Source: Sapria himalayana
Lineage: Eukaryota; Streptophyta; Magnoliopsida; Malpighiales; Rafflesiaceae
Length of the DNA: 64,000 nt
Reading direction: 5' to 3'
Assembly (NCBI GenBank): GCA_029783825.1
Contig: JAREIK010002415.1
Coordinates: 1,455,006 to 1,519,005 of the forward strand
How positions within the stretch are numbered: position 1 is the stretch's first letter; each line of letters begins with the position of its first letter. The notes beneath the pieces were generated by a model. That model did no database searches. It had not been told where the DNA came from and saw only the letters and a program-made list of their open reading frames with translations. The translations under genes were made by a program, and so were the position numbers. Shown one piece after another: positions 5,984 through 54,960 of this stretch.

Positions 5984-6367
5984 TAGAAGTGTTAAGTGGG
6001 CTAGACAGTTTGGCACAACAAGAGGAATGGCTTGAATTAGTCGTGTCAGGCCTAGCACGACATGGTACATAACCATGTCTGGATCTAGACCATGTCGGCA
6101 TGAAGCACGACTTGTGTCATGCTAGGCTTGAGCAAGTCATGCCTCATGTTGAGCCAAGTATGACCCCAATGACTAACTCGATGGCATTGTTCACATGCAC
6201 GGTGACCCATGATGAAGCATGGGTGGAACATGGGTCATGGGTCATGCTCTATTGTATGATTGTTTCCAATGGCTACACTCTAGAAATATGATATTTGTTG
6301 GATTTTTTGCCATGTAAATTATAAAATAAAATTAAAATATATATACTTTTAAAATTTTAAAATTTTT

Positions 6368-6376
6368 TATAAATAG
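6368..6376 (+). promoter_or_regulatory. Probable TATA box of hAT-1
   Basis: TATAAATAG is followed within 100 bp by a pyrimidine-rich leader (repeated TTCTCT and CTCTCC), typical for a plant core promoter. It lies upstream of the transposase remnant. No experimental support. Confidence 0.4.
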
Positions 6377-7660
6377 AGAATATAAATTTCTTGAATTTCA
6401 TTCTCTATTTCTCCAAATCTCTCCTTGCCTACAATTCTCTCTCATTTCTCTTCCTCATGTGTTTCCTATTTTTACAATTTTTTTATTGTTGCTATATTTA
6501 ATTTATGCATACTTAGTGTAAGTTATAACTAGAAATTTTAGTAGAGATCAAAGGTGATGCAATGAGAAGTTGACTACAAAAAAGTGGTTGTGGTTATAGA
6601 TTACTTTTTTATTTGTTTGTAAGTTTGTTATTAGTTTTATTTATAAATTAGAATATTTTTTAAAAAAAGACAAATAATGAATATAACAATAATAAATTTG
6701 ATGTATATAAAGATAATAATGGAAATTCTATCAAAATGCCTGGGACAGAAACTAGGTTTTCTCCAATAGTCTCGACCCTAATATATTTTTTTGCCACATA
6801 AAAAATAAAAAACTAGGTGAACTTTAATATTATAGACTCACCCCACTTGAAGATAATAAAAAATAAAAATTAAAGGCATTTTGAAGAAGAATCGCTAAAA
6901 TATATATATTGTCAAATATTATATGCTTGTAAAGAGTGCATGCTATGATGGTCACCTTAAGATGCATATCGATCAATGCACTAAAAATTATAGTGTATTA
7001 GATCCCATGAAAACCTAAACTAGTGAAAGGGTCTTTCAAATTTGATCTAGTTCAGTTTTGTTGACACCTTTCATATATCATAATAATCTTAAGAGGAAAG
7101 CATTATCAAACGGATTATGATCACGAGTCCTTTAATTAGATTTTTAGAAAATCCTAGGATAATATGTATTATGCATGCCTACTTGTAGCTTACTTATCAT
7201 ATGATTCCTAGTTCCACCAGTTTGAATGACATAATAAAATATTATAAGTTAGAAAAATAATTAATAATTTATAAATTTAAAAAATATAGTGGAGTAGTGT
7301 CCATGATATCTGATATCTAGACTAATCACGAAGATGCATTATCTTCATACCTCATCGCCCACTATGTAGGTTCAAAATGATGGACTTGCCATATGTAACT
7401 TATGAGTGTATGAGAAGATAATTAGGGAATAAGATATTTAGAATAAAATATTTAGCATTACTTTCGATAATACTTCTAGTAATATAGTGGCTATTAGTAT
7501 GTTTTTATAACTATTAGAGATGAGCCATTAGGCAATATTTTTCATGTTATGTATTTTTGTCACACAATTAACTTGATAGTACAGGTGATAATGAAAATTA
7601 TTTTTCTAGCATTAGAAAAGATAAAATAAATTACTAAATATCTTAGGATGTTTAGCTGAC

Positions 7661-7668
7661 TATAAGAG
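7661..7668 (+). repeat. Target-site duplication of nested hAT derivative, left
   Basis: TATAAGAG is repeated without change at 8137-8144. A perfect 8-bp duplication indicates a fairly recent hAT insertion. Confidence 0.9.
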
Positions 7669-8136
7669 TAGATGTGTCAAACGGGCCTGGACGGGCCGGG
7701 CCGGACCGTTTTTTTAGGGCACGATCGTGCTTCCGTGCCGGGCTGGGCACCGCACGGTTACTGTACCATGCCGTGCCCGGCCCAACACGGTTTAAAAAAA
7801 CCAGGCCCGACACAGCCCGACACGGCCCGCAGGCACGGCGGGCTGTGCCGTGCCTTGCCTGGCCTGCTCGGGCTTGCCTGTCCGAGCGGTTCGGGATATG
7901 GGGGACCACGGGTCGGGTCGAATCAGACCCGACCCGTGGTCTTTTTTTGCCGGAGGGGCATCATGGGGTCAGGCTCCCGGGACACCCGGCACGGGATAAA
8001 CCCGTGCCGGTTTGCCGGGCCAGGCACGACATGGGACCGGGCACGGAATTTTTCAGTGCCGGGCCGGCCCAGGAACGGCTGAACCGTGCCGTGCCTCGTG
8101 CCGGGCAGGGCCGGCCCGGCTCGGTTGACACCTTTA
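7669..8136 (+). mobile_element. 468-bp GC-rich non-autonomous hAT derivative nested in hAT-1
   Basis: Begins TAGATGTGTCAAACGGGCC and ends TTGACACCTTTA, with a perfect 8-bp duplication. It has no transposase. It is very rich in GC and in CpG, packed with GGCACGG/CCGTGCC words, in sharp contrast to its AT-rich host. It contains a perfect 16-bp hairpin at 7904-7941. Long open frames on both strands across it are a by-product of GC-rich repeats and not genes. It is the best-preserved hAT end sequence in the window. Confidence 0.9.
7904..7941. repeat. Perfect 16-bp inverted repeat with 6-base loop
   Basis: Arm GACCACGGGTCGGGTC (7904-7919), loop GAATCA, arm GACCCGACCCGTGGTC (7926-7941), followed by a T run. 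All 16 pairs match. It lies in the middle of the short hAT derivative. A bacterial terminator would look like this, but in a plant transposon it is more likely a structural or protein-binding palindrome. Confidence 0.9.
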
Positions 8137-8144
8137 TATAAGAG
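8137..8144 (+). repeat. Target-site duplication of nested hAT derivative, right
   Basis: TATAAGAG, identical to 7661-7668. Confidence 0.9.
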
Positions 8145-9795
8145 TTTAGTAGTCTCTATTTTTTAGAAAGCCTAAAAAAGAAAATAAAATTAAATGGATA
8201 TGAGATACCATTAGAATTATATTTACTTGATGTTGGAGTCATGTATTGATTATCAACACATGATATCTGATTGCGCAACTAGTAAAAATGATGAAATTAT
8301 TATTGGTGATTTTTACTAGTATGAATTTTTTTATAAAATTCTTAAATATTTTTTATGATATAAAGATTATATGTTTGTTAATATACACCTCTATTGCTTG
8401 CATTACACTTAGATATATATGTAATATTAATAGTAAATTTAGAAAATATAAAGGCTACCCTGGATATATTGTTGTGGTTGTTGAGATAGATATTAAATAT
8501 TTAAATTACTAATCTATCATTCCATATCTTTATTATTTAGACATGTATATAGATCATAGGGTTAAGGTGAAAAAAGTAGAAAATATTTTGAAATACATAT
8601 CCAAATGTATGAACTATAAACATTTATTTGAAGGTTTAATTTACAAAAAATTAATTAACTTATTTATATATTACGACAATAGGTATGGTAGTTATAGTCA
8701 AACTTCAAGTATGGATACGAACATCTTATTTAAAGATGATGGCATATCCATTCAGATAGCTATGGGCAAATGATGGGGTAGTTTATTGAATAGGACCGAG
8801 CTATCTCAATACTTAGATATTAATTATTGCTTCATCATATCATATAATGATAATAAAAATTTAGATATTTTATTTTGGTAAAAATCATATATATCTACTT
8901 ATCCAAATTTAATTAAGATGATACATAATCTACTAACCCCTCTAGTATGGTAGCCAATATCTAGCATAACATTAGAGTATTCTTTTTTTATGACAACTAA
9001 TATTATTTTAGATATGAGATCAAGATTATGCATGTATATCATAGAGACACTTGAATGTATGAAGAACTAGGAAGATTCAAGATTAGGCATTTAGGATAAA
9101 GCACAAAAGATGATGGTAGATGATGGTCATGGAGATCAAGGATATTGAAGCCACCACTAGAGATACCTTCAAACATATATATGATGCTAAGGAACTGCAT
9201 CTATATCTTTACTACCATACCATAGTACTCATTGATGACTCGTGTGATTTTTGATTATTTTTTACATACGATACCATATTATCTTTGTTTTTTTTATTTT
9301 TATCAATTATGCCATAGTCATTATGTACTTATGCTCTTATAAGTTATGCTTCATCATATGTTATATAATGTATATGTATTATATTCTATTTTTGATTATG
9401 GAATGGAATTATTTTTTTTATTAAACAATTTTATTTTTTATTCGAGGCAATTTTCAGAATTTTTAAATTATTTATTTTAATTTAATTTATTTAAATGTAA
9501 TATTTTCATTATATGCTAAAATACAAAATTGAAATTTTAATATATTTTAATTAGATTTCTACCCAAAAACTAAAAAGACATGGCATGAATCAACATGGTC
9601 TAACATGACATGATATGACCCAGCATAACCCGACACTACTATAGGCCAAATGGTCCATGCTATGCCTAATAGTTTGCTATCCATGACATGTTGGGCATAA
9701 CACAAGATCCATCTAGTGTCATGTCTGAAAGGGTGACATGGCTGGACCACATAGAAAATAGTAATGTCACATGGTACAACCCATTGACACATCTA

Positions 9796-14100: not shown

Positions 14101-14727
14101 TAGAGATATCAAATGGGTAGGGCTGGGATGACACTACTGAGTTTTTGGTGGCCCAACTGGGTCACCATGTCATGTCGTCCCTAGCCCAGCATGGTTTCAT
14201 CATACTAGGCCCGATATAGCCCATCGATCTGGCAAGTGATGAAACCATGCTGGGTCCAGCACGTACGGGCCGATGTTTAATTTTTTAATTTGGAATATGT
14301 AAAAAATTATAAAATTTAAATTTTAAAGATTTATTTATAATTATTTAATTGTATACTTTAAAAGTTTTTGTTTTTAGTTAATGTTAATAGATATTGTTAA
14401 TTGTTAACTATAAATATATAATTAATTTTAAAATTTTTATTTTATCAAATTTAATAAAACATTAAGTTTATTTATTATAATAAATAACTAAAATTTTAAA
14501 ACTAAATGTGTATCAGTATAAGTGTATGAATTAATAAAACATTAAAACATAAATATAAATAAAAACTAATGAAAAATAAAAATTTACAAAGAATTAATAT
14601 TCAAGTTTCAAGCATCAAACCACGAACTCAAAGTAATATCAAAAATAAAAAATAACAAACACAAATACATTGTAAATGTGTACATCAAAATCCAATATCA
14701 GATATCAGTGTCTCAAATCTCAATCCG

Positions 14728-16720
14728 TTAATCATCAACGTCATCAATCATCAAATCATCCTCAATATCAATATTACATAGATAATCATCAGTAATCAAC
14801 TCATCCGCTTTTGCTGCAGCCCCGGCATGATCTTGGATGCTCCAGCTCGAATGCTTCCGATCATTCATGCATGCTAAAGCCTCAACAATATCTGGCTATA
14901 ATCTTGATCTCTTTTCCAAAATAATATTTACTGCAATAGAAAAAAAAAACTACGATGCTACACTCGACACTAGAGGAGTCAATATATCTCATATCATCTT
15001 AGATATCTTGGGAAAGGTGGACTCGTATGATTTTCACCATTATTATATATCAAAATTCTTAGTATCAGAATGTGATAGGATTGAGTAGTAATCGGTACTT
15101 AAATACCGAGATAGTTCGATCCTATTTGATGGTCCACCCCAGCATATCTCCCTCCTAACTAAATGAAAAAGTCATCATCTCCAAATATGGTATCCATATC
15201 CATACTTAGAGTCTCACTGGTATTACTAGCAAACCGTGTATTATAGTATGTTAAGAGCTCAGTTAACTTCTCGTGAACAAATCCTTCAGGTGAGGCTTCC
15301 GGGTTCATGCACGAGAAAATATATGTCAAAATATTCTCTACACATTCTACCTTAACCCTAGGGTCCATGTAGGCAGTCAGACGATAAAGAGATGGAATGG
15401 TGGACTAGTACTTTAAGTAATTATTTTCCATCTCTACAGCCATATCATTAAATGTCAGGTCATCTTGATACTTCGCAAACATACTACTAATGTTGCATGT
15501 GCACCTAAGTGCAATGCAAGTCATGAAAGTATAAACTGACAAAAATATATTCTTCGTGTCATAAAAAATCTTCAAGAATTTCATAAATAAAATTTCTCTA
15601 GCTTAGTCAGTGTCGTCAATAATAAGTTTGTCGCTCTTACTATTGACATAGTCAAATATCACATATATACAACACATGACTCTAATATCAGGTATGTAAT
15701 TCCAACGTGTCTCACATCCAATTGGAATTTTTTATTCTTATGATTTGTAAACAAATAGAGATTATAGAACTCCTATTATCTGCGAGGCATGTGAATATAT
15801 TTTAGTGAGTTACATATATTTTCTAAAGTGTGGGCATACACCTTAATCCCTGCATGTACTATCAGGTTAATAATGTGACATATGCATTTAACATGGAAAA
15901 TATTTCCTAATGGTTTATCTCTAATATTCCTAAAAACGTGTTAATCATTACTCCATTATTAGATGCATTATCAAATGTGATTCTAAATATTTTATTTTGA
16001 ATTTTATTTTCTCTAAAGATTTTCATAATACTCTGAAAAATGGTTGGGTCATCACGAGGATAAAAAATTTCAGAGAATCCTAATATTTTTTTATTTAGTG
16101 TCTATATAGAATCTATATAGTGGGCGGTGAGGCATGCATAAGATCCATTATAATGACTATTCTATATATTAGACGTCACAGACATCACTCCACTATATTC
16201 TCTAAATTCATACATTATTATTTGTTTTTTTAACTTAAAAATTTTAGAATGTTTTTCCTAGATGTGAACCTGGGAATTATATGACATGTAGGCTGAAAAT
16301 ATGCTTGCATAATACTGACTACCCTTGGATCCTCCAAATATTTAATCAGAAGACCCATCGTGGTGATTAGTTTGGACAAGTCTTCCCTCTCTAACTCATT
16401 GCTATATATGAAGGAGGTAAACTTTGAGACTGAACTGGATCTAGCCTCAAAAAACTCACCATTGAGTTGTGTTTGCCTAGGATCTAATACACCATGTTTT
16501 TTGGTGCATTAGATGTTAATATTTTTTAAGGTACTCAGTCACACATGAACTCTTACATGTTAATATATTTTTACAAATATTACACTGTGCCGATTCTTCT
16601 TAGCACCCCTAACAATTTTTATTTTATTTTATTAAGTGAGTCTAAACTGCTGAAATTATTCAAGTTTTTTGTTTTTAAATTATTTAGGTCAATGCAACCG
16701 GAGAAACCAAGGTTTCGGCT
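14728..16720 (-). pseudogene. hAT transposase pseudogene (hAT-3)
   Basis: The minus strand carries a degenerate BED-finger block (about 16620-16480), the mid-domain ending near 15480, and a clear block at 15368-15159 starting M-D-P-R-V-K-V-E-C-V-E-N and ending F-G-D-D-D-F-F-I. An acidic C-terminus ends at the stop at 14728 (M-I-D-D-V-D-D). The acidic tail also occurs in the 47300-49366 copy (M-L-I-D-D). Stops and frameshifts break the frame in several places. Confidence 0.8.
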
Positions 16721-16834
16721 ACCTCAGACATTTCCATAAGATTTTTGTTATCTAAGCTATAATTAATTTTATTTTCATTATTAAAATTACTATTTATCAT
16801 TTTTTTAGATTTTACTTAATAGTTAAGATTAGAA

Positions 16835-17120
16835 GAGAGAAAGAGAGAGATAGAGAGGGATAGAGAGAGAGAGAGAGAGATTAGACTAGAGAGAAGAAGT
16901 AGAAGATTTTACATTTTAGATTTAAATTTTAAAACATTAAAACATAAAAACTAATAAATAAATAAATACTCTTAAACCATAATGTGTAAACTTTAGCTTT
17001 TTATATGCCCGTACCGCACACATATCACAATCCACACCACAGCCGAGTCCTAAAAGGTGAAATGCCGAATGTCCAAAACTGATATTCAAAAACTCAAGAT
17101 AGATAAAATTAGAAAGAGAA

Positions 17121-17218
<98 letters not shown>

Positions 17219-17221
17219 GAG

Positions 17222-17253
<32 letters not shown>
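16835..17253. repeat. GA-rich microsatellites and (TA)n
   Basis: GAGAGA runs occur at about 16835-16882 and 17120-17225, the latter running into TATATA to 17253. They lie in the transposase leader side of hAT-3, on the strand opposite to transcription as CT runs. Confidence 0.95.
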
Positions 17254-17256
<3 letters not shown>

Positions 17257-17314
17257 TTAAAAATATAAATCTTAGAATGAGGTGAAAGAATTTATAGATA
17301 AAAAAAAAGACAAT

Positions 17315-17440
17315 TTAAAAAATTTTTGATTTTTCTTGATTTTTTTTTTGATTTTTCTTGATTTTTTTTGATTTTTTTTTATTTTTTTTGATTTTTTTTG
17401 ATTTTTTTTGATTTTTTTTGATTTTTTGGTTTTTTTTTTA
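17315..17440. repeat. T-rich tandem repeat, unit GATTTTTTTT
   Basis: About ten units of 9-13 bases, alternating GATTTTTCTT and GATTTTTTTT, within hAT-3. Confidence 0.9.
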
Positions 17441-17925
17441 ATTTTTTATAATTAAAAAATCAGTAGAATCATAAGGGCCATTGGATTCTGCCCAATAGTC
17501 ATTGGAGGCGAAATCCAACAGCTTCGATTTGAATTTTATTTTTTATTTTTTATTTTTTGTTTTTATTTTTTTTTCGTTGGGTCGGTTCTACCGTCGAACC
17601 GACCCAAATGGTTCATTCCAAAAGCTTTGGCTTCTAGATTATGAGCTTGGACTTGGGTCTAGGGGGTGTGAAAAAAGACCATAGGTCGGATTATGGGTTC
17701 GATGAGAATATCAAATCCATCAAGCATCGAGTTCGGGTCAAAGGCATGGAGCTTCGTCGGGGCATATCTCGCTCTTGACGAGATACATTGCCCACTGGCC
17801 ATTGTGTTGGGCCATGCCTAGCCCAACAACACATAGCTTGTGTCGTGCTGTGCTGGGCCAGCCACAACTGAGTCAGGCAGTGCCGTGGGTCGTGCCTGGG
17901 CTGCCCGGCCCGTTTGACACCTCTA

Positions 17926-42028: not shown

Positions 42029-43534
42029 TAGTTGTATGAAATTCTTATTGAATAATATAAGTTAGTATTACAAATTCTAGTATGTACTAGGTTAGATATA
42101 ATTAAAGAACTGATTAATTATTTAGATAGCATGATGTCTGAGAAATATTAATATCTTAACAGCCTTACCCATAAAAATTGAATAGGTTGCATCTAATGAG
42201 TCGCGAATATGAGATCTATCATTCTTAGATGAATATACTTTTCATCATTCCATGATATGTGGTATGACTCTATACCCTTACAATATAATTGATGTGATGA
42301 AAAATACACATTAATCTTTATTAATAAACAAAATGAATACCATGTATAATTGGTAGAAAATGTGAATATAATGTACAAAAGCACAATATAAGACTATATC
42401 TCAACAATTTTAAAATTTATGCATTTGCATACAAACATGCACATTTCTACTTATTGTGGGCTAGCAAAGAAACACAAATTAGTGAGTTTTTTTAGATGGT
42501 AGTGTCAAAAAATGTTAATGTTGTTGAACATCAAAATGAGTTTATTGACATTTAAACATGAATTAGTAGGCAAATCTCATATTTTTTATTTTTTTGTTAA
42601 CCATCTTCAGGAATTGATGATAGCCCTCCATTCTTCATCTTGATAAGCTTCATCAAATGGAGAAAGTAGATACACATGTGATCCTTAATGGTGGTGGTGG
42701 CATGTGTTGTTCTTCGCCATTAATGGTTATAGTTGCATGGTATCTCATATGTTATTGTTTTTTTCACTTTTTGTATTGCAGAACTCCTGATATGTTCAAT
42801 CTTATAGTTATTTTCATGTAACAACAATAAAAATAACAGCTGAGTAGTCAATAAAATAAATTCCTTCCCTAGTTTTGGCCATCTTCACAATTTCTGAATT
42901 TAATAATTGGATGCGTTTCTTATTGAAAATAAATTGTCTAACTATATCATGATCTTAATTACAATTGAATGATTCCTTGGTTGTCAAGTTGCCTATAGAT
43001 GAGGGTGTGAACGATGATATGCATGGCTTTTGCTACCAATTCATCGTCAAAACATGACTCCTTAATCATTAATTACTTTTTTTTAACTCATGGAAGTGAA
43101 GTTTATTCTTCACAGGTCTTGCTTATCCCCAAACAATATCTCCAAGCTAATATTAGGGATACCCACCCACTTGATTCCTTTGCATACAACTATATCATGC
43201 AAAAAAAAAAAGAATTTTATTTGTTATTATATCAAAAATATGGTAGCCCAATTGGAAAATGAACAAGACTGCTCAATTATTAACTTTTTCATTAATGTTG
43301 ATTACCAATATTTGATTACCAATATTTGACTCTCTTGACTAACTTAATATGATCAATTGTTAACTTTTTCATCAATATTGATTACAAATATTTGAAAACA
43401 AATGGAAACAAATATAAACACACAAAAAAGTTACTCTATCATAACCTTCACTTGTGATACAAGAATGACTAACTCTCTACTAATTGACTCTCTTGCTAGA
43501 TAGAACCTATATACCACTTTTACGGTCATGCATA
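39616..43534. other. Unassigned interval
   Basis: About 3.9 kb with no family I recognise. A CA/TA microsatellite occurs at 41973-42026. Open stretches at 42193-42384 (minus) and 43014-43329 (plus, two frames) have no recognisable domain. A short direct repeat, ATTGATTACCAATATTTGA near 43295-43330 and again near 43370-43396, is present. It may be non-coding parts of an old LTR element. Confidence 0.4.
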
Positions 43535-43543
43535 TTTATCAAT
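43535..43543 (+). repeat. MULE target-site duplication, left (9 bp)
   Basis: TTTATCAAT against TTTATTAAT at 54102-54110, 8 of 9, differing by one C/T transition. Nine bases is the mark of Mutator-like elements. Confidence 0.8.
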
Positions 43544-43730
43544 GGGAGAATTATGTTTTGGGGTGTTTCCCCAAAAATTTTTAAGATTAAGAAACTAAAA
43601 TTTTGATATTTTTTAAAAAAGTCACAAAACTAAAAATAAATTAAAAATAAGTACACCCAAATTCGTGTCCTAAACTACTCTCTCCCATGCCCCTCACCCT
43701 CGCCACTAGCACTCACCCCTCTCTCATCCT
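43544..43730 (+). repeat. MULE terminal inverted repeat, left
   Basis: Pairs with about 53930-54101. Conserved words are GAATTATGTTT(T/C)GGGGTG, TTCCCCAAA, CCTAAACTAC and CCTCACCCTC. The C-rich inner part (43680-43860) consists of ACGCCC/CCATGCCC/TCACCC words. Confidence 0.75.
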
Positions 43731-43869
43731 CGCCCCTAACTCACGCCCTTCACTCTCGTCCACGCCCATGCCCATCACCCACGCCCTCACCCATGCCCTT
43801 GCTCCTTTCCCTTCTCCCAAATGCCCTCACCTTTCACCCCCCTTTCCCCACCTCTTTTTTCCCTGTCTG

Positions 43870-44333
43870 TTTCCACGAGCTCCTTTTTGAACCTTCGTCA
43901 AGCTTCAGCGAGCTCGACGTGGAGCTCCGTCGAGCTCTTGGAGCTCATCGACGAGCTCCTGGAGCTTGACAGAGAGCTCCATGGAGCTAGACCGAGCTTG
44001 TCATTGAGCTTTCAGTCGAGCTCGATGGAGCCTAACATGAAACTTCAAGAGAACGAATTAGCTCAAAGTCAAGCTCCTGGAGCTCGACCAAATGCTCCAT
44101 CGAGCTCATCGTCGAGCTCCATGAGCTCAAAGGATCTCGACGCCAAGATACTAGAACTTGATCGAAAGCTTGTCGTCGATCTCCAGAAGCTCGATAGAGT
44201 TCTCGGTCGAGCTCCAAGAGCTCGACGGAGCTCTCGGTCGAGCTGTTGAAGCTTGAAAAAGCTTGACACCTAGTTCCTGGAGCTAGATTGAGAGCTCCAT
44301 CAAACTTGTCGTCGAGCTCCAGGAGCTCCAATA
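43870..44333. repeat. GAGCTC-rich palindromic array, left part
   Basis: The self-complementary hexamer GAGCTC recurs many times at spacings of roughly 9-24 bases, usually as TCGAGCTCC, GGAGCTCGA or GAGCTTGA variants. Both strands are open over long stretches (43821-44249 plus; 44032-44331 minus) and would encode leucine/glutamate/aspartate-rich words such as E-L-L-E-L-D-R-E-L. No start context or homology supports a gene. The array continues at 53676. Confidence 0.85.
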
Positions 44334-44752
44334 TGTCACATCCTTACTCAAAGAATGTGGAATATTCTAAAAGATTACGAAGAAGTCTACACTTGTATGG
44401 ATGGAAGGAGATTATCCTAGATTATTCTAGAATTCTCTTGGATATATGTAATAGAATTTTCTAGACTTATAGGAAACCTTCAAATGTTCTAAACCCTTCC
44501 ATATGCATGTATTTAAGGAGGAGGTGGTCTCATTTGTAAACCACCAAGTTGAGAGTTTATTATAAGTTTTCATTATTCAATAAAGTGTTTTCTTTATTTT
44601 CAAGTGTTCTCTCAAATTCTCTTTGCTTCCAAGTTGTGGGTAGGCGCCAAAAATAACATGCAAGGAAAAAGTAAGGCTAACTTAACAACATCTAATGGGT
44701 AAGTTATCTAAGTGCTGCAAGGGAACTTAGTGAAAAGACTAAGTCCATGATA
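44334..44752 (+). repeat. 5' LTR of the chromovirus
   Basis: 419 bp, aligning end to end with 53257-53675. I count by eye roughly 50-60 differences, mostly transitions, so the insertion is old. A TATTTAA box lies at 44510-44516 and an AATAAA polyadenylation word at 44579-44584. Confidence 0.9.
44510..44516 (+). promoter_or_regulatory. LTR TATA-like box
   Basis: TATTTAA, retained in both LTRs, about 60-70 bp upstream of the AATAAA word. Confidence 0.5.
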
Positions 44753-44754
44753 GT

Positions 44755-44765
44755 TGGTATCAGAG
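44755..44765 (+). promoter_or_regulatory. Primer-binding site for tRNA-iMet
   Basis: TGGTATCAGAG, complementary to the 3' end of initiator methionine tRNA, two bases inside the 5' LTR. Confidence 0.9.
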
Positions 44766-44799
44766 AGAAGTTGAAACGTGTGAGAGTAACTTGGCGGAT

Positions 44800-45935
44800 A
44801 TGATGTCGAGCTCTCATTTGGAAAAAATTTCCAAGTAAGTTCAGGGAAGGGACCTTGACCCTTTCGCTAAGGGAAGGGGAAAGAATGACAAGTCTCATGA
44901 TCCTCTCACAAGCTTGGACAGTCGAGTGACACGGTTAGAGGTCACCATGGAAAACACCAAGGAGGGGTTCGATCTAATGGAGCAAAGCATGGAGGTCAAA
45001 AAGGGTTTCATGATTCAGATCCTAGACCTTCAAGAGGGGATGCAAGGCTTGCCGATCTTAGTGGTGTTGCCTGAGGCTTTATGAAGGTCATGGGCATGCT
45101 CGCTAGCTTAGAATCAATGGTAGAGGTCTTGACCAAGCATGAGGAGGAGCTGAAACAAGAAGTGGCAATCTACAAGATGGCATTGTCGGCTCGGATTATG
45201 TCCGCTCATGAGGCCCAAAGGGTGGATGTGCCAAAACCTCACACATTCATGGGAAAACATGATGCTAAAGAGCTAGACAACTATTTGTGGCACATGGAGA
45301 GATATTTTGAGGTGATATCTCTAACTGATGATGTAACAAATGTACGCACTACTACTCTTTATCTCACTAATAATGCAATTCTATGGTGGCGTAGATAATT
45401 TATGGAGATAGAAAGAGGGATGTGCACCATAGACACATGGGTCAATTTCAAGAGAGAGATAAAAAAGCAATTTTATCCAGAAGATGCAGGATACATTGCT
45501 CATAGAAAGATCAGGCATCTCAAGCTCACGGGATCTATTCGGGACTATGTCAAGGAGTTCTCTTCCTTGATGCTCGAGGCTCCTGATATGAATGAGAAAG
45601 AACTTCTCTTCAATTTTATGGAGAACCCACAAGGCTAGGCCGAGCAAGAATTGAGGAGACGTGGTATCCAAGACTTAGCCATGGCCATGGTAGTAGCAGA
45701 GTCACTCATGGATTTCCAAAGGGGAGACTATTCTTGAACCAATCTATCCTTCAAGGGTAGTCATGCCAAAGATGGGAGAGATAGGAGATACAAAAGCTAT
45801 AATGCTAAGGAATGATCAAGAATGACTTCTACCAACAAAGAAAGCAATGGTGGGGATAAACACGAGGATTTCAAGCCAAAAACCAATTACTTCCTATGTG
45901 ATGAACCACACTAGGCAGGTGAATGTTCTAAAAGA
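44800..45935 (+). pseudogene. Chromovirus gag pseudogene
   Basis: The first ATG after the primer site is at 44800. The coiled-coil-like region (S-L-D-S-R-V-T-R-L-E-V-T-M-E) is followed by a frameshift near 45070. The capsid segment in 45081-45398 (F-M-G-K-H-D-A-K-E-L-D-N-Y-L-W then I-L-W-W-R-R) and 45402-45638 (F-K-R-E-I-K-K-Q-F-Y-P then Y-V-K-E-F-S-S-L) is typical of gypsy Gag. The zinc knuckle near 45890-45915 has lost its first cysteine (Y-F-L-C-D then A-G-E-C). In-frame stops occur at 45396, 45636, 45736 and nearby. Gag would form the virus-like particle; this one cannot. Confidence 0.85.
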
Positions 45936-45950
45936 AATGACCTAAATGTC

Positions 45951-46423
45951 ATGATCGAGAGAGAGATTGAACAAGAGGATGATGCCTCTCACATGGGGTC
46001 AATGCAGCTATTGAATGCCCTCAATATCAAGCAAGCTAAGGAGAAGCCTCATAGTAGGGGACTCATATACTTGGAGGCCAAGGTGAATGGGATGTCTACT
46101 AAGGCCATGATAGATACCGGTGCCACACATAACTTTGTCTCAAAGGAGAATGCAAGGAGACTCAAGCTCCCAACATCCAATGAAGTAGGATGGTTCAAGG
46201 CAGTAAACTCTGCTGCCAAGCCATCACATGGAATAGCTCGCGGTGACCATGAGGATCGGCGATCGGGCCTTGGGAAGGCAAGGTTAACTTCGCGATGGTA
46301 CCCATGGATGATTCCTAGATAATGATCAAGATGGATTTCCTTCACCAGGTAAAAGCTATGCATATATTTTTTCTATGTTCGATGACTATCTTAGAAGAGG
46401 GAGCTCCATGCATGGTTCCCACA
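45951..46423 (+). pseudogene. Chromovirus protease fragment, cut by hAT-8
   Basis: The aspartic protease active site D-T-G-A-T-H-N-F lies at about 46113-46136, in an open stretch of 123 codons. Past it the frame shifts and runs into stops. The coding region is interrupted at 46423 by the hAT insertion and resumes after 50252. Confidence 0.85.
46416..46423 (+). repeat. hAT-8 target-site duplication, left
   Basis: TTCCCACA against TTCCAACA at 50245-50252, 7 of 8. Confidence 0.8.
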
Positions 46424-46790
46424 TAGAGGTGTCAACCGATTCGGTCGTGCCTGGGTCGTCCCGGCACGGGAATTTCTCATGCTCGGGCCTGTGTCGTGCC
46501 ATGCCGAGACTAACCGGGCCTCGTGCTGTGCCTGACCCGGCACAATTCGGTGGCCCTTGGCACGGCCCGTCGGCACGGGTCATGTCTCGCAAACCCGCAC
46601 CTGGCACCCCACGACCTCCAAATCACCAGTCCCCACCACCCCATCACCACGCATCCACGCCAATGCTCGCACAGGTCCAATCAGACTCGACTCGCTGTCC
46701 CGCCCGACCCGATCCCCCACCCCCCCCCCCCCAAACGGGCAAATGTTAAAAAAAATTTAAATAAAAACATTGGATTTCACCTCCAAAGGC

Positions 46791-46831
46791 TAGGGGGCAG
46801 AATCCGACGTCCCTCATGATTCTGCCCCCTA
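46791..46831. repeat. Subterminal hairpin, 14-bp arms
   Basis: Arm TAGGGGGCAGAATC (46791-46804), 13-base loop, arm GATTCTGCCCCCTA (46818-46831), all 14 pairs matching. It lies about 370 bp inside the left end of hAT-8. Related words (TGGATTCTGCCC; CCATTGGATTTC) occur at the equivalent place in hAT-3 (about 17480) and hAT-4 (about 25890). Confidence 0.9.
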
Positions 46832-46899
46832 AAATACTATAAAAAATTAAAAAAAAAACAAAAAAAAACTTTTTTTTAAAAAAATTATTTCTTTTAATC

Positions 46900-46906
46900 T
46901 ATAAAA
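46900..46906 (+). promoter_or_regulatory. Probable TATA box of hAT-8
   Basis: TATAAAA, followed by a CT-rich leader (CTCTCACCTCTCT), about 560 bp before the first zinc-finger codons. Confidence 0.45.
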
Positions 46907-47299
46907 TTCCTCTCACCTCTCTATAACATTTATATTTTTCATAAACATTTATTCTCAAAAGTCAAATCTCACATTCTCACTGTCTCAAAACTCCTGCTAT
47001 TCTCTCTCTAGGGACTCAAGAATCAGGATTTCATCATTCGGCTCAGCTTTTTGGGACTCTCAAGTAGGGTTTGGAATTTTGAACTAGATTGTGGTGCATC
47101 GTGCATGAGATCTACCTTACTACTTTACCGGGTAATTTATTTTAAGTTTTTTTTACTTTCTCTCTCTTTGTCTCTCTAATCTCTCTCTATAATACTAAAA
47201 TAGTAAAATCTAAAATCTATCATCTAGTCTCTATCTCTTGTGTCCTGTTTAACAAAAATCCTAAAAATAACAAATAGTAATGAAACATATTATATTTAG

Positions 47300-49366
47300 A
47301 AAATGAAAATCTTACAAAGAGGTCTGAGGTTGCTGAAACTTTGGTTTCTCCAGTCGTCTCAACCCAAACTTCTAAAAAAACTAGGAGGACTTCTATAGTT
47401 TAGACTCATTTTAACTTAATAAAACAAAAAAAATGTTAGAGGTGAAGAAGAAAAAATGACACAGTGCAAATATTGTATGAGAAATTTAACTTGTAAGAGT
47501 TTGTTTGGGACTGGACATCTTAAGAGGCATGCAGAATTATGCACCAAAAAACATGATACATTAGATCCTAGGCAAACCCTACTTAATACTGCATTTTTTG
47601 AGACTAGATCGAGTTCAGTCTCAAAGTTTACTCCTTTCATATATTTTAGCGAGTTTGGTAGGGGCAGCATGGACAGACTTATCACATTGATGGGTCTTCC
47701 GATCAGATTTTCGGAAGATCCAAGGGTAGTGCACATCATGCAGAAATATTTTCAACCTGCTTATCATAGGATTCCTAGGTCCACATCTAGGAATGACAAA
47801 CTAAAAATATATAATTTAGAAAAACAAAAAATAATTAATGAATTTATGGCATATAGTAGAGTGGTGTCCGTGACGTCCGATATCTAGACAAGTCACGATG
47901 AATCATCTTATGCATGTCTCACCAACCACTATAAAGATTCTAACTGGACTATGAATAAAAAAATTTTAGGATTCTCTGAGATTCTTCATCCTCGTGATGG
48001 CCCGACCATTTTTGAGTGTATGATGAAAATTTTTAGGGAATATAAAATTCATAATAAAATTTTTAGTGTCACATTTGATAACACATCTAATAATGGAGTA
48101 ATGATTAACATGTTTTTTAGGAATATTAGAGATGCACCATTAGGAGAGATTTGTCATGTCAGATGCATGTGTCACGTGATTAACCTGATTGTTCAAGCAG
48201 GTATGAAGGTGTGTTTTCCCGCATTGGATAATATACGTAATGCACTAAAATATATTCACACTCCTCGTAGACAACAAAAGTTTGGTAGTCTATATTTGTT
48301 TGTGAATCTTAAGAAGAAGAAATTCCAATCGGATGTGAGACACCGTTAGAATTACATGTACCTGATGTTAGAGTCATGTGTTGGATACGAACACATGATA
48401 TCCGACTACGTCAATAGTAAGAGTGACGAACTTATTATTGACGACACTGATTGGGCTTCAAGAATTTTATTTATGAAATTCCTGAATATTTTTTATGACA
48501 TGACGATCATGTGTTCGTCGGTTTATACTCCTATCACTTGCATTGCACCCAGGTGCATGTGCAATATTAGTAGCATGTTTAGGAAGTATTGAGCTGATCT
48601 GACACTTAGCCATATGGTTGTAGAGATAAAAACCAAATACTAAAAGTACTGGTCCACCATTCCATCTCTTTATTATCTCGCTGCATGCATGGACCCTAGG
48701 GTTAAGGTGGAAGGGGTAGATAACACCCTCACTTATATTTTCTCATGCATGCACTTGGAAGACCCACCTGGAGGGTTCATTCACAAGAAGTTGACTGATC
48801 TGTTAACATACTATGATACTAGGTACGGTGGTGGTGGTAGTGAGACTGTGATTATGGACATTGATACCTTCTTTGGAGATGACTATTTTTCCATTCAGTT
48901 AGCGAGGGGGAAATGACGAGGTGGATCATCACATAGGAGCGAGCTTTCTCGATACTTAGATACCAATTACTGCTCAATCCTATCACATTCTGATACTAAG
49001 AATCTTGATATATTACAGTGGTGAAAATCATATGAGTCCACCTTTTCCATGCTATCTAGGATGGCACGGGATCTACTAACTCCTTCGGTGTTGAGCGTAG
49101 CATCGAAGTCTGCTTTTTCTGTTGTAGTGAATGTGATTTCAGATAGGAGATTGAGATTACATCCTGATATTATTGAGGTCTTGGCTTGTTTGAAGGATTA
49201 GGAGGATTTGAAGTTTAGCATCCAGGATCATGCTGAAGTTGGGACAGGGACTGCATCCGCATTCCCTGTGAAAGCGGAAGATTTGATTGCTAATGATGAT
49301 GATCCATATGATAGTGATCTTGATGTTGTGGTTGATGATGCTCATGATATGTTGATTGATGATTGA
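47300..49366 (+). pseudogene. hAT transposase pseudogene, best-preserved copy (hAT-8)
   Basis: The order is that of Ac-like hAT transposases. A BED zinc finger (47456-47560: C-K-Y-C, then H-L-K-R-H and C) has its upstream tryptophan codon changed to a stop. The RNase H-like catalytic region starts with V-S-V-T-S-D (first aspartate) near 47866, broken by a stop, then F-S-V-T-F-D-N (second aspartate) near 48064. Next is the C-H-V-R-C-M-C-H-V-I-N-L block (48150-48190), the D-P-R-V-K-V-E-G-V block (48689), and the dimerisation region (about 49010-49200; L-L-T-P-S, R-R-L-R-L-H-P-D). The acidic tail ends at 49366. About ten stops or shifts disable it. Confidence 0.9.
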
Positions 49367-50033
49367 CGTGATTACCGGTTTCCCCTGCTCGTTGCCAGAC
49401 ACCAATTGCCAATGCAATGCCAGTACGCCATGCAATATTCCATTTGTCATTGCCACTTGATTTTGATTTTTGATACCTCACAGTCATGGACATAGTTGAT
49501 GATTTTTGTAATTTATTCTTCATTTTACTTTTTGATTTCGATATTTTGTTTTTTATTGATTGTATGCTTTTTTTACATTACGTTGAAACTTATATTTACT
49601 TTGGTTCGGTATCTATTAACTGATTGGTCATTTGGTTTGCTTTTATTTTTTTTTTGACTTTGTAATTTTTTTTAACGAAATTTTGTGTTTAATTTATTTT
49701 TTTTTAAATTTTCATTTAAAAATTAAAACTCTATAATTTAATTCTAATAAATTATAATCTAAATTTAGTTTAAATTATAAAAAAAAAGTAAAACTTTATT
49801 AAATATTTTTAAGTTACAAATTTTTAATAATTGTCAATTTACCAATTTAAATTTTAAACTTGGTAATTTATTTATATTATATTTTTAATAAAAAAATTTA
49901 AACTTTGTAATTTATTAAATTTTTAACAATTTTAATGTTACAAATTTAATATATTATACATTATCTATATATAATATAATATATTTTTTATATAAAATTT
50001 AATACAATACTTTAAAAATTTTTTAAAATTATT
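49367..50033. other. hAT-8 3' untranslated region, AT-rich
   Basis: Non-coding and T-rich between the transposase stop and the GC-rich right subterminal region (50040-50244). Confidence 0.7.
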
Positions 50034-50244
50034 TTTTATTAAACCAAGCCCATAAAGGCCTGACACGGCACAGCACTTTAACTACTGGGCTAGCGGGCCA
50101 TGCCAGGCCTAGCTTTGTTAAACCATGCCGGGCCAGGCACGACACAGTACAGTAACCTTGCCATGCCTGGCCCGGCACAAAAGCACGGGCATGCTCAAAA
50201 AAAAAGGGTCAGGTCATCCCGGCACGTCCCGTTTAACACCTCTA

Positions 50245-50252
50245 TTCCAACA
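50245..50252 (+). repeat. hAT-8 target-site duplication, right
   Basis: TTCCAACA, partner of 46416-46423. Confidence 0.8.
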
Positions 50253-50329
50253 ATCATCAAATGTAAAACTAAAATGTTTATGTTGTTGGCCATGAAATGG
50301 GAGAAGAGGTTGAAAAAAGAATGAGGTAA

Positions 50330-53293
50330 CCTACTTGGCGACCTTCAAGGAAGACCCTAGTGACCCTATGAGAAATTATATGCCCAATGAAGTCATGGAG
50401 GTGTTAGACGAATTCAAAGATATAATGCCACAGGAGCTACCCAAAAAGCTCTCACCCAAGAGGAAGGAAGATCACAAGATCGAGTTGTAGCAGGAGCAAA
50501 ACCCCTTGCCATGGGGCCCTACAAGATGGTACCCCTAGAGTTGGAGGAATTAAGAAGATAGTTGAAGGAATTATTGGATGTTAGATTTATCCAACCATCT
50601 AAGGGTTCATATGGTGCGCTGGTCTTATTCCAAAAGAAGCATGATGGGTCACTGTGGATGTGCATCGATTACAAGGTGCTCAACAAGGTAATGATTAAGA
50701 ACAAGTATCTCATTCCTCTTATTACTGATTTATTTGACCAACTTGGTAAAGCACGGTACTTTACTAAGTTAGACCTTTGATCGGGGTACTACCAAGTAAG
50801 GATAGCTGAAGGAGATGAGGCAAAGACCACGTGTGTAACAATTCATGGCTCTTATGAGTTCCTAGTGATGCCCTTTGGTCTTACTAATGCACCTGCTATA
50901 TTGTGCACTTTAATCAACAAGATATTCCATCCTTTTTTGGATAAATTTGTGGTGGTATATCTAGATGATATTGTTATATATAGTAACACATTGGAAGAGC
51001 TTGTTAATCATCTAAAGAAGGTATTCTGGCTGCTAAGGCAAAATGAGTTATTCGTGAAGAAGGAGAAATGTTTCTTTTCCCTTGAGGAGGTTGGCTTCTT
51101 GGGACACCGCATCAAGGGTGGCAAGCTCATGATAGATAAAAGCAAGATCAAAGCCATTTAGGAATGGGATCCCCCTACTAAGATGCCACATATAAGGTCT
51201 TTCTTAGGCCTAGTTAACTACTATCAGTGATTCATCAAGAGATACTCAGCAAAAACAGATCCATTAACAGACCTTCTCAAGAAGGGTAAGGCATGGACAT
51301 GGAATGAAAAATGACAACAATCCTTTGAAGACTTAAAGAATGCTATAATGAAGGAGCCGGTATTGGCACTACTTTACCATACCAAAGTGTTCGAGGTACA
51401 CACAGATGCTTCTGACTTTGCCATTGGAGGGGTTCTTATGCAGGAGATATGTCCCATAGTTTTTGAAAGCCACAAGCTCAATGACATAGAGAAGCGGTAC
51501 AATGTCTAAGAGAAGGAGATGATGGCAATCATCCATTTCTTGCGGACATGGAAACACTATTTGGTAGGATCATACTTCATAGTGAAGATAGATAATATTA
51601 CTACTAGCTATTTCCAGACCCAGGAGAAACTAAGTCCCAAGAAAGCATGGTGGCAGGACTTCCTAGTAGAGTTTGACTGCACGTTGGAGTACAAGCCAAG
51701 CATAGCCAAAATTGTAGCTGATGCCTTGAGCCGCAAAGTATAGCTAGCATCCATGACTAGCCAACCCCAGAAAGATGATGGATCTCATAAAGGAGGGGTT
51801 GCAACATGATGTAGTGGCCAAGAGTATCATCACAATGGCTCACGAGGGAAAGACTAGACAGTTTTGGGTAGAGAATGATTTGCTCTACACAAAAGGAAAG
51901 CGACTCTATGTGCCAAAGTGACAAAGTATTAGAAGGAATCTTATCAAGGAGTATCATGACTCCATATGGACTGGACACCCAGGGCAACGACGCACAAGGG
52001 CACTACTAGAGTCTGTCTACTACTGGCCACAGATAAGGAATGATGTGGAGACTTATGTGGAGACTTGTCATGTATGTCAACAAGATAAAGTGGAGCAACA
52101 TTTGCCTAAGAGACTGTTGGAGCCACTACCTATAGCAGAGCAACCTTGGGAAAGTATCACTATGGACTTCATTATCGGCTTACCCAAGTCCAAAGGAAAT
52201 GGATCTATCATAGTGGTAGTGGATCGATTTTCAAAGTATGCTATATTCATAACAGCCCCTAAAAATTGCACAGCAGAATAGATGGTCAAGCTATTCCTCA
52301 AGAACATGGTAAAGTATTGGGGACTACCGAAGGTTATCATTAGTGATCATGTCGCACGCTTTACTAGAAATTTTTGGACGAAGTTCTTCAAACTCATGGG
52401 CATGGAACTTCGCTTCTCTACTAGCTTTCATCCTCATGCTGATGGGCATACAGAATGGGTGAATGCATTACTAGAGCTATACTTGAGGCACTTTGTGAGT
52501 GTCAATCAGATTGACTGGGCCAAATTGCTAGATGTGGCTCAGTTCTCCTACAATCTACAGAGAAGTAAGACAACTGGGAGGAGTCCATTCGAGATAGTCA
52601 TGAGGCAACAACTAATGACTCCTCATACCCTAGCCAGAGGATACACGGGGAGAAGTCCAGTAGCTTACAAATTTGCTAAGGGATTGCACAAGCAAGCTGA
52701 TATAGCACGCTCATTCTTAAGGAAGAATGCTAAGGGGATGAATAAATTGGGTTGACAAGAAAAGAAGATATATAGAATTTCAAGTCGGAGACTTAGTGCT
52801 TGTCAAGCTTCTACCGTAACAATTCAAGTCCCTTCGAAAGGTGCACAAATGACTTGTGAGGAAGTATAAAGGCTCATTTTCTATACTTGGACGAGTTGGT
52901 AAGGTATCTTACAAAGTTGAGTTACCGCCAAGGTTGAAGATTCATTATGTCTTCCATGTTAGCAATCTAAAACCTTATCATGAAGATAATAAAGATCCAG
53001 GCCGAGGAGTCTCTATGAGGGCACCCATAGTAGTAGTGACCTTCTATGATAAAGAGGTGGACTACATCAGTGCAGATCATGACCTAAGGAAGATCAAATT
53101 TTGGCCCAATAAGGGATACTTAGTAAAATAGAGGGGACTACCAGAAAGTGAAGCCAGTTGGGAGCCAGCTAATAATATGTGGCAGTTTTAGGAACATATC
53201 AAGCAGTTACAGGTAGAAAAATCGAAGAGGATGTCAGCAACATTGGTGGGGGAGAATGTCACACCCTCACTCAAAGAATGCAGAATATTCTAG
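50330..53293 (+). pseudogene. Chromovirus pol pseudogene (reverse transcriptase, RNase H, integrase, chromodomain)
   Basis: Reverse transcriptase: Q-P-S-K-G-S-Y near 50590, K-L-D-L at 50770, P-F-G-L-T-N-A-P at 50868 and catalytic Y-L-D-D at 50958-50969. RNase H: H-T-D-A-S-D near 51400, and A-D-A-L-S-R-K ending near 51740. Integrase: H-x-H and C-x2-C zinc finger (51950-52080), core starting M-D-F-I-I-G-L-P (52165), the I-I-S-D segment (52337) and W-V-N-A-L-L-E (52459). A GPY/F-like stretch is at 52870, and a chromodomain (Y-L-V-K, stop for W, R-G-L-P-E-S-E-A-S-W-E-P) at 53115-53185. The frame ends inside the 3' LTR at 53293. Stops at about 50779, 51159, 51228, 51312, 51507, 51741 and 52279 make it dead. 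Confidence 0.9.
53243..53256 (+). promoter_or_regulatory. Polypurine tract of the chromovirus
   Basis: TTGGTGGGGGAGAA immediately before TGTCACA of the 3' LTR. It lies inside the end of pol. Confidence 0.75.
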
Positions 53294-53675
53294 AAGATTC
53301 CAAAGAAGTCCGCACTTGTATAGAAGGAAAGAGATTATACTAGATTATTTTAGAATTCTCTTGGATATATGTAATAAAATTCTCTAGACTTATAGGGAAC
53401 CTTCAAAGGTTCTAGACCCTTCCCTATGCATGTATTTAAGGTAGCGGTTGCCTCATTTGTAAACTACTAAGTTGAGAGTTTCTTATAAGATTTCATTATT
53501 CAGTAAAGTGTTTTCTTTTTTTTCAAGTGTTCTCTCAAATTCTATTTGCTTCCAAATTGTGGGTAGATGCCAAGCATAACAAGCAAGGTTAAAGTAAGGC
53601 TGACTTAACAATATCTAAAAGTTAAGTTGTCTAAGTGATGCACGGGAACTTAGCGAAAAGACTAAGTTCGTAACA
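53257..53675 (+). repeat. 3' LTR of the chromovirus
   Basis: 419 bp, same length as the 5' LTR. It starts TGTCACACCCTCACTC and ends GTTCGTAACA. Confidence 0.9.
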
Positions 53676-53925
53676 AGGAGCTCTCGGTCGAGCTCTAAGG
53701 AGCTCAATGCCGAGGTCCTGGAGCTCGACCGAAAGCTCCATCGAGCTCATCATTTGAGCTCTAGGGGCTCGATGGAGCTCTCGGTCAAGCTCTAGGAGCT
53801 TAATGGAGCATGATGCCAAGCTCATGGAGCTCGAAGGATCTCAAAGTCTAGCTCCGAGAGCACGACCACGAGCTCTAGAAGATCGATGGAGCTTGTGGTT
53901 GAGCTCCAACGAGCTCGATGGGAGA
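53676..53925. repeat. GAGCTC-rich palindromic array, right part
   Basis: Continues the array of 43870-44333 on the far side of the retrotransposon, with the same words (GGAGCTCTCGGTCGAGCTC, GGAGCTCGACCG). Together the two parts would have been about 0.7 kb before insertion. Confidence 0.85.
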
Positions 53926-53929
53926 GGGC

Positions 53930-54101
53930 GAGGGCCAATGGGAGAGGGCCGATGAAGAGGGTGAGGTAGTTTAGGATAAACGTAATAGAATGCACTAGAT
54001 TTCAATATATTAATATTTTGGTGATTTTTTTTCAAACTTAAAAAGATAAATTTCAAATTCTTAAATTTATTTGGGGAAGCACCCCGAAACATAATTCCCC
54101 C
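53930..54101 (-). repeat. MULE terminal inverted repeat, right
   Basis: Inverted partner of 43544-43730. It ends CATAATTCCCCC. Confidence 0.75.
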
Positions 54102-54110
54102 TTTATTAAT
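54102..54110 (+). repeat. MULE target-site duplication, right (9 bp)
   Basis: TTTATTAAT, partner of 43535-43543. Confidence 0.8.
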
Positions 54111-54960
54111 TATTTTTGCTATGTTCTCTTACGTCCCTAGCATTGGGTCTAGTTGGGATTTTGTTCTTGCTACATGGCAAATAAGTTGTATTATTGGCGA
54201 GGTTATGCATCTAATACAAAAGATTTAACAATCTAACTCCTAATTACCAATTTTTTCTTTTATTTTAATCAATTATAAACTTTATGGTAGCTCATTTTTG
54301 AAATTTTGGAATCAATTATAATTCATTATTATCCATTTGACCAATTTCTATTAAAATTTTAGTAGATCAAAATAAATATATGTAAGTGCGAGACTTTTAG
54401 TTAATATTTTATAATAATTTTAGTTACTTTAAGTGTGAGCAATAAATTTTTCTAGTGCCAATTATAGACATGTTCTTGAGAACTTTGCTTGGTGTCTATG
54501 CATCAAGAGTCAAATTTTCATTACAAAATATTATTAATGTTTATAAATATTTTATTTTAGAGCTATTTTTTAAATATTTATTATAATTAATTTTGCTTAT
54601 TAAGTCACAATCCCGTTGATATAAATATATCGAGCAAACATACATCTTTTATGCAAAATTTCAAATGAAACATAAACTATTTATTTCGGATGGGGATGAG
54701 TAGTTCAACCCAACACTCACATCTTTTAGGTCCTATAATAAACATAAAAAAACATGAAAATTTTAAGAATTAAAACATTTAATAACCAATAAAATGAAAT
54801 GAATGCTGAATATTTTTCTACCAAACACAATCCACCTTTAGAGTTTGCATTGTCATTCTTCTTCCCAATGGGATAGAAAATTTCTATCCTAAATTTTATA
54901 GGAATAACTCTCTAGGGGCTGACTAATTATATTCCAGAATTTACATAAATATTCAAATAG
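54111..54960. other. Unassigned AT-rich interval
   Basis: No gene or repeat recognised. Confidence 0.4.

What the first reader, a model, noticed from the sequence alone, without database searches (positions are those of the whole stretch)
43535..54110. Three-level nested transposons: hAT inside chromovirus inside MULE
Target duplications at two levels (TTTATCAAT/TTTATTAAT for the MULE; TTCCCACA/TTCCAACA for hAT-8) and matching 419-bp LTRs fix the order: MULE first, then the gypsy element into its GAGCTC array, then the hAT between protease and reverse transcriptase. The retrotransposon frame and the MULE array both resume on the far side of their inserts.
Basis: seen in the sequence. Interest (0 to 1): 0.75.

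Follow-up and report, generated by a model that had tools for sequence, protein, structure and literature searches.

The report
Three jumping genes nested in one
In a plant genome, one jumping gene (a small MULE) was interrupted by a retrotransposon, which was itself later interrupted by a third jumping gene (a hAT); this is an ordinary kind of genomic history, with one less ordinary detail, that the retrotransposon seems to prefer a short mirror-image DNA motif that is dense in the MULE it hit.

Summary
The nest is real and its order is right. A non-autonomous MULE (43544-54101; 9-bp TSD, 8/9) carries a chromovirus (44334-53675; LTRs 366/419 identical), which carries a hAT (46424-50244; 8-bp TSD, 7/8) between protease and reverse transcriptase. 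Genome copies bear out the hAT join: in 20 of 22 other chromovirus copies its flanks abut with exactly the 8-bp overlap the TSD predicts; the other 2 are deleted there. In 25 of 29 other MULE loci two ends lie within 2.2 kb, and 16 of those have flanking 9-mers matching in 8 or 9 places. Host flanks are single-copy, so the MULE's empty site could not be tested. Its family makes 4-bp TSDs (20 of 20 other insertions >=3/4); this copy's AATA/AGGA (2/4) is the worst of 21. The frame resumes across the hAT itself, but shifts elsewhere. Beyond the finding: this chromovirus family prefers a palindromic target, about WSC-NNNN-GSW; sites fitting it are 29 times denser in this MULE array than in the rest of the window and 7 times denser than in the shuffled array. 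Nesting may thus be partly sequence-guided. Nesting itself is commonplace in plants.

The parts
43535..43543 (+). MULE target duplication, left (TTTATCAAT)
43544..54101 (.). Non-autonomous MULE, interrupted; about 1216 bp of its own sequence (790 + 426)
   Evidence: TIRs and TSD; 25 of 29 other loci have two ends within 2.2 kb
43544..43686 (+). MULE left terminal inverted repeat
   Evidence: 72.6% over 157 aligned columns (43532-43686 against 54113-53959), E 2.8e-17
43880..44333 (.). GAGCTC-rich array, left arm (17 GAGCTC in 454 bp; 31-bp sub-unit)
44330..44333 (+). Candidate 4-bp TSD of the chromovirus, left (AATA)
   Evidence: family TSD length, paired
44334..53675 (+). Chromovirus (Ty3/gypsy), 9342 bp with the hAT; 5513 bp by arithmetic without the hAT and one TSD copy
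44334..44752 (+). 5' LTR, 419 bp, TG...TA
44755..44765 (+). Primer binding site TGGTATCAGAG (initiator tRNA-Met type, recalled)
45354..45623 (+). gag (Retrotrans_gag, PF03732)
   Evidence: E 2.6e-13, stops read as X
46074..46223 (+). aspartic protease (PF13650; PF13975 overlaps)
   Evidence: E 7.4e-7
46416..46423 (+). hAT target duplication, left (TTCCCACA)
   Evidence: overlap of exactly 8 bp in 20 of 22 other copies
46424..50244 (+). hAT element, 3821 bp, ends TAGAGGTGT...ACACCTCTA
48557..49198 (+). hAT transposase, RNase-H-like and C-terminal dimerisation domains (frame broken by stops)
   Evidence: PF14372 E 6e-8, PF05699 E 5.1e-15; 4 distant plant relatives, 24-27%
50245..50252 (+). hAT target duplication, right (TTCCAACA)
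50634..51674 (+). reverse transcriptase and RNase H
   Evidence: PF00078 E 4.9e-32, PF17919, PF17917
51922..52434 (+). integrase zinc-binding and core domains
   Evidence: PF17921 E 2.6e-20, PF00665 E 2.1e-9
53054..53188 (+). chromodomain, weak
   Evidence: PF00385 E 1.1e-4, 22.4 bits, below Pfam's cut-off of 25.1
53257..53675 (+). 3' LTR, 419 bp, TG...CA, preceded by a polypurine tract
53676..53679 (+). Candidate 4-bp TSD of the chromovirus, right (AGGA), followed by GCT
53676..53935 (.). GAGCTC-rich array, right arm (11 GAGCTC in 260 bp)
53959..54101 (-). MULE right terminal inverted repeat
54102..54110 (+). MULE target duplication, right (TTTATTAAT)

Best explanation
Three successive insertions at one plant locus. 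First, a non-autonomous MULE of about 1.2 kb with an internal GAGCTC-rich tandem array inserted and duplicated 9 bp of single-copy host DNA. Second, a chromovirus of a family that makes 4-bp target duplications and prefers a palindromic site (about W S C - NNNN - G S W) integrated into the array, which is full of such sites. Third, a 3.8-kb hAT inserted into that chromovirus copy between protease and reverse transcriptase, duplicating 8 bp. All three then decayed. Shown: the ends, the outer and inner TSDs, uninterrupted relatives at the hAT site, uninterrupted MULE relatives, the family's 4-bp TSD and its target preference. Inferred: that the chromovirus entered in one integration event and that its TSD (AATA/AGGA) has decayed, and that the array's motif density helped attract it.
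For: TSDs at exact ends. LTR pair. Of 120 listed relatives (of 7941 with E <= 0.001), 41 match on both sides of the hAT by a loose criterion; in 10 the two matches meet at the hAT ends, 9 with a 3-residue overlap and 1 with a 2-residue gap, frame kept; in the other 31 the matches stop short of one or both ends, which says nothing. 20 of 22 distinct other genome copies show an exact 8-bp overlap at the hAT site. 25 of 29 other MULE loci have two ends within 2.2 kb, and 16 of 25 have flanking 9-mers of 8/9 or 9/9 against 63 of 3000 control pairs. 4-bp TSD: 20 of 20 other insertions with both flanks read have >=3/4, 10 exact. Target preference: GC at -6,-5 in 26 and CC in 11 of 52 distinct left flanks (background about 2.5% each), GC at +5,+6 in 12 and GG in 6 of 30 right flanks (background GC 2.3%); in flanks fetched by LTR similarity alone, GC 14 and CC 5 of 26 left, GC 13 and GG 4 of 20 right. 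Motif density: 22 in 714 bp of array, 57 in 53350 bp elsewhere, 3.1 +- 1.7 in shuffled array, highest of 1000 shuffles 11.
Against: The chromovirus TSD is 2/4, the worst of 21. The two LTRs differ by 12.6%, more than the mean between different copies (11.9%), and the 5' LTR groups with another copy, L039 (98/83); but a sister pair is not rejected (p-AU 0.278), and the pair of copy C1147, with a perfect TSD, is not sister in the tree either. The strict palindrome AGCNNNNGCT does not occur in this array.
Confidence: 0.93

Rival explanations
1. Same nest, but the chromovirus is a recombinant: two copies sat in the array, and exchange between them left a 5' LTR from one insertion and a 3' LTR from another, so there is no true TSD.
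For: TSD 2/4, LTR divergence above the mean of all pairs, 5' LTR groups with L039. LTRs with polypurine tract on the left and primer site on the right, as in tandem copies, occur elsewhere in the family (L073, L107).
Against: The AU test does not reject a sister pair; the LTR tree is star-like and separates a pair with a perfect TSD too. Two or more mismatches in 4 bp are expected by decay alone in 7-9% of cases.
Confidence: 0.2
2. The composite moved together: the chromovirus was already inside the MULE when the MULE last jumped.
For: Nothing in the anatomy alone excludes it; the MULE TSD dates only its last jump.
Against: The 25 paired MULE loci are 0.68-1.68 kb, though the pairing was capped at 2.2 kb and 4 of 29 loci showed one end only, so a long copy would not have been seen; host flanks are single-copy. 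A 9-kb load would be large for a non-autonomous MULE (recalled).
Confidence: 0.05
3. Assembly artefact: unrelated repeats joined by the assembler.
For: Repeats of all three families are common in this assembly.
Against: A mis-join would not create matching TSDs at the exact ends of two elements, nor an exact 8-bp overlap with 20 of 22 copies.
Confidence: 0.02

Closest known systems
Nested LTR retrotransposons in plant genomes (PMC6911290; abstract and section 8 read)
   Same: LTR element inserted in an older element; the paper reports non-random nesting, TSDs of mostly 5 and some 4 bp, and a slight palindrome preference
   Different: Here the older element is a MULE array, not an LTR element, and the preference is strong in one family
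Chromovirus clades Galadriel and Reina (PMC6911290 section 8; PMC3605345, passages)
   Same: 4-bp TSD is commonest in Galadriel, Phygy and Bryco (PMC6911290); Reina elements of beet listed in the passage (5.3-5.8 kb, LTRs 293-503 bp) match this element's size
   Different: Clade not tested here; the beet Galadriel element Beon1 and the beet Reina elements are listed with 5-bp TSDs (PMC3605345)
Palindromic target-site motifs of Drosophila LTR and TIR elements (PMC3276498, passages)
   Same: Palindromic motif extending up to 3 bp beyond the TSD, as here
   Different: The LTR motifs there tend to be AT-rich; here the strong positions are G/C just outside the TSD

Membership tests
MULE (Mutator-like, non-autonomous) | 9-bp TSD | tested here: met
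   8/9 here; 16 of 25 other loci 8/9 or 9/9, control 63 of 3000
MULE (Mutator-like, non-autonomous) | long terminal inverted repeats beginning with G | tested here: met
   GGGAGAATTATG / GGGGGAATTATG, about 150 bp at 73%
MULE (Mutator-like, non-autonomous) | mobilised by a MuDR-type transposase | not tested
   the two arms were not scanned for protein domains and no autonomous partner was sought
Chromovirus | gag, protease, RT, RNase H, integrase in Ty3/gypsy order | tested here: met
Chromovirus | chromodomain C-terminal to integrase | tested here: inconclusive
   PF00385 E 1.1e-4 but 22.4 bits, below the 25.1 cut-off; several of the 120 listed relatives carry PF00385 in the precomputed column
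Galadriel or other chromovirus clade | placement in an RT/INT tree with reference clades | not tested
hAT | 8-bp TSD and short TIRs | tested here: met
   7/8; TAGAGGTGTCAA / TAGAGGTGTTAA
hAT | hAT transposase with C-terminal dimerisation domain | tested here: met
   PF05699 E 5.1e-15

The most novel reading that the evidence does not exclude
The middle insertion was not random: a plant chromovirus family with a 4-bp TSD has an integrase that reads a palindrome of about WSC-NNNN-GSW strongly enough that GAGCTC-array MULEs act as natural landing pads, making the MULE family a sequence-defined safe harbour. Of 41 other LTR rows with a genomic flank (not all independent elements), 5 have three or more AGCT in the 50-120 bp of flank looked at (background 2 of 1253 windows of 100 bp), and 4 have flanks matching the MULE family by BLAST (control 28 of 970).
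Probability: 0.35. Interest if true: 0.5.

Novelty: new member of a known kind. Interest (0 to 1): 0.33.

Why it matters
As a nest it is one more dated layer cake in a repeat-rich plant genome. What makes it more useful is that copies in the same genome show the empty hAT site and unoccupied MULEs, so the order is demonstrated rather than argued, and that the chromovirus family shows a strong two-sided target preference. [quoted passage not shown] this family's preference lies just outside the TSD, where a survey of TSD sequences alone would miss it.

Tried and rejected
A 5-bp TSD for the chromovirus (usual in plants) was tried first and failed: CAATA/AGGAG, 0 of 5, and no exact 4- to 6-mer within +-4 of the ends. 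The family evidence then showed 4 bp. LTR sisterhood as a test of one insertion versus recombination was uninformative because the LTR tree is star-like. BLAST of LTR flanks to MULEs as an enrichment test is weak: 4 of 41 rows against 28 of 970 control segments, p 0.037, uncorrected. A first hAT transposase search found nothing at E <= 0.001 among 3669 candidates; scored on residues 50-640 alone it found 4 distant relatives. Repeat spacing across the chromovirus junction has peaks at 99, 205, 236 and 130, compatible with but not proof of array continuity. Empty site for the MULE: the left host flank matches only itself and the right one only itself plus two short weak matches, so none was found in this assembly. 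Literature: (nested transposons, hAT, MULE, chromovirus) listed 0 papers, one search listed 7, (MULEs with tandem repeats or minisatellites, 4 of 5 terms) listed 3, (palindromic target consensus) listed 5; in these listings I saw no title on GAGCTC-array MULEs, which is not proof of absence.

Full report
What was checked. The window lies in a 2.06-Gb assembly of 18497 contigs. It is most likely a flowering plant: the best-scoring reverse-transcriptase relatives that carry an organism name are from Vitis vinifera, and most other named ones in the listing are plants. The stretch 43000-54600 was read, its repeats listed, and its ends, LTRs and TSDs measured.

Outer layer. The ends 43544 (GGGAGAATTATG) and 54101 (reverse complement GGGGGAATTATG) are flanked by TTTATCAAT and TTTATTAAT (8/9). 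The inverted repeats align over 157 columns at 72.6%, E 2.8e-17. A genome search with the left arm scored 40 of 2308 candidates and 30 loci were fetched, one of them the window's own. Of the 29 others, 25 have two ends within 2.2 kb (the cap I set), with lengths 683-1676 bp (the window's own MULE sequence is 1216 bp) and 15-60 AGCT words inside; 4 show one end only. In 16 of 25 the flanking 9-mers agree in 8 or 9 places (8 of them in all 9) when ends may slide by 3, against 63 of 3000 random pairs allowed the same slide. The control is somewhat lenient: the real loci also offered a choice among several end pairs, and several matching 9-mers are A/T runs. The other 9 agree less, down to 1/9. 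The family is thus very probably a mobile, 9-bp-TSD element with an AGCT-rich inside, and uninterrupted copies are common.

Middle layer. 419-bp LTRs, 366 identical, 33 transitions and 20 transversions; K2P 0.140, roughly 5 million years at 1.3e-8 or 10 million at 7e-9 per site per year (rates recalled). Pfam finds gag, protease, RT, RNase H, integrase and SH3_Tf2-1, and a chromodomain below its cut-off. I then read the flanks of other copies. All left and right LTR flanks in hand were paired by contig, strand and distance in a script: 20 distinct pairs, 14 full-length-type (5.0-9.0 kb apart) and 6 solo LTRs; 20 of 20 have a 4-bp TSD with at least 3 of 4 matching, 10 exact, for instance AGC-AATA | AATA-GCT on contig C88 and AGC-TGGA | TGGA-GCT on C1372. 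Chance for >=3/4 is 7.3% per pair. Copy C506 was left out because its 3' LTR end is unclear. The window's AATA/AGGA is 2/4; decay alone would do this in 7-9% of cases.

Target preference. An exact pattern for the LTR start with A or T at -7 gave 99 places, 55 distinct flanks, 52 after dropping 3 that look like polypurine tracts. At -6,-5 there is GC in 26 and CC in 11 of 52 (background about 2.5% each). Right flanks, with +1 not G and +7 not A imposed to avoid primer sites: 38 places, 30 distinct; GC at +5,+6 in 12 and GG in 6. The outermost W on either side is thus partly imposed by my patterns, but with G or C at -7 and not A at -1 there are only 5 places, and flanks fetched by LTR similarity alone agree: left GC 14 and CC 5 of 26, W at -7 in 24; right GC 13 and GG 4 of 20, W at +7 in 18. 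The preference is two-sided and roughly symmetric about the 4-bp TSD: WSC-NNNN-GSW. Of the 99 left places, 34 share one flank (AGCTTGT), mostly on short contigs, as if one insertion had been amplified; distinct flanks were counted for that reason. In the array arms the relaxed motif occurs 22 times in 714 bp, in the rest of the window 57 times in 53350 bp; in 12 of the 25 other MULEs, those picked for good ends, 133 in 11837 bp inside and 74 in 31170 bp outside. Base composition explains only part: shuffled arms give 3.1 +- 1.7 (highest of 1000: 11), the shuffled 12 MULEs 45.5 +- 6.6 (highest of 300: 62). The strict form AGCNNNNGCT is absent from this array. The window's own site reads TCC-AATA | AGGA-GCT, which fits. 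Other insertions with AGCT-dense flanks: 5 of 41 rows (L050, L058, L063, L105, L119) against 2 of 1253 background windows of 100 bp; the rows are not all independent elements, flank lengths differ, and the motif itself contributes AGCT. An exact search for GAGCTC within 30 bp upstream of the LTR start found 9 matches at 7 places. I take guided insertion as plausible, not shown.

Inner layer. The hAT (3821 bp) has 8-bp TSDs (7/8), short TIRs and hAT transposase domains with stops. Its site is the best-tested join. From proteins: of 120 listed relatives, 41 match on both sides of the hAT by a loose criterion, and in 10 the matches end at 46417-46423 and restart at 50244-50253, 9 with a 3-residue overlap and 1 with a 2-residue gap. 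From the same genome: searching the two flanks separately in other copies, 20 of 22 distinct copies have them abutting with an overlap of exactly 8 bases; the other 2 (L090, L100, both on contig C777 and perhaps one duplicated copy) lack sequence right of the site. L080 is the same copy as L088 and was not counted; L085 and L086 may also be duplicates. Frames agree at the hAT edges after 3829 bp are subtracted, but the polyprotein frame shifts at about 46244-46262, and 50302-50535 matches in frame 1.

What limits this. The LTR tree of 34 rows is star-like; the window's two LTRs are not sisters in it, but the data do not reject that (p-AU 0.278), and a pair with a perfect TSD (C1147) behaves the same. 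Only the best 40 candidates per DNA search of the genome are scored, so family sizes are lower bounds.

Verdict. Observation confirmed, interpretation supported, with the middle element's TSD now read as a probably decayed 4-bp one. Nested transposons of this sort are ordinary; the palindromic target preference of this chromovirus family and its fit to the MULE array are worth a genome-wide count.

Noticed in passing
5984-9795 and 7669-8136: A 3812-bp hAT-like element (TSD CTAAAGAC/CTAATGAC, 7/8) that itself holds a 468-bp hAT-like element with a perfect 8-bp TSD (TATAAGAG): a second nest in the same window.
   Followed up: partly
14101-17925 (- strand); also about 10.7-12.7, 26.0-27.7, 29.7-31.8 and 35.6-38.9 kb: A 3825-bp hAT with a perfect 8-bp TSD (CTTTCAAT), 78% identical to the nested hAT over 1956 bp. 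Counting the 5984-9795 element, the nested hAT matches five other stretches of the window, and a sixth (35.6-38.9 kb) matches those: an unusually hAT-rich 64 kb.
   Followed up: partly
44750-44752 and other 5' LTR ends (L039, L040, L044, L050, L054, L055, L057, L062, L071, L072, L073): LTRs followed by the primer site end in TA in 11 of 17 distinct cases, 3' and solo LTRs in 0 of 15 (Fisher p 1e-4). In the 5' LTR the last C is followed by AG (CAG, a CHG methylation site), which may explain a C-to-T decay. L067 and L076 were left out (ends unclear).
   Followed up: partly
contigs C262, C845, C1088, C1634 and others, flank AGCTTGT: The same LTR insertion flank recurs at 34 of 99 places, mostly on short contigs, as if one insertion had been amplified within a repeat.
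   Followed up: no
L073, L107: LTRs with a polypurine tract on the left and a primer site on the right, as in tandem chromovirus copies sharing an LTR.
   Followed up: no
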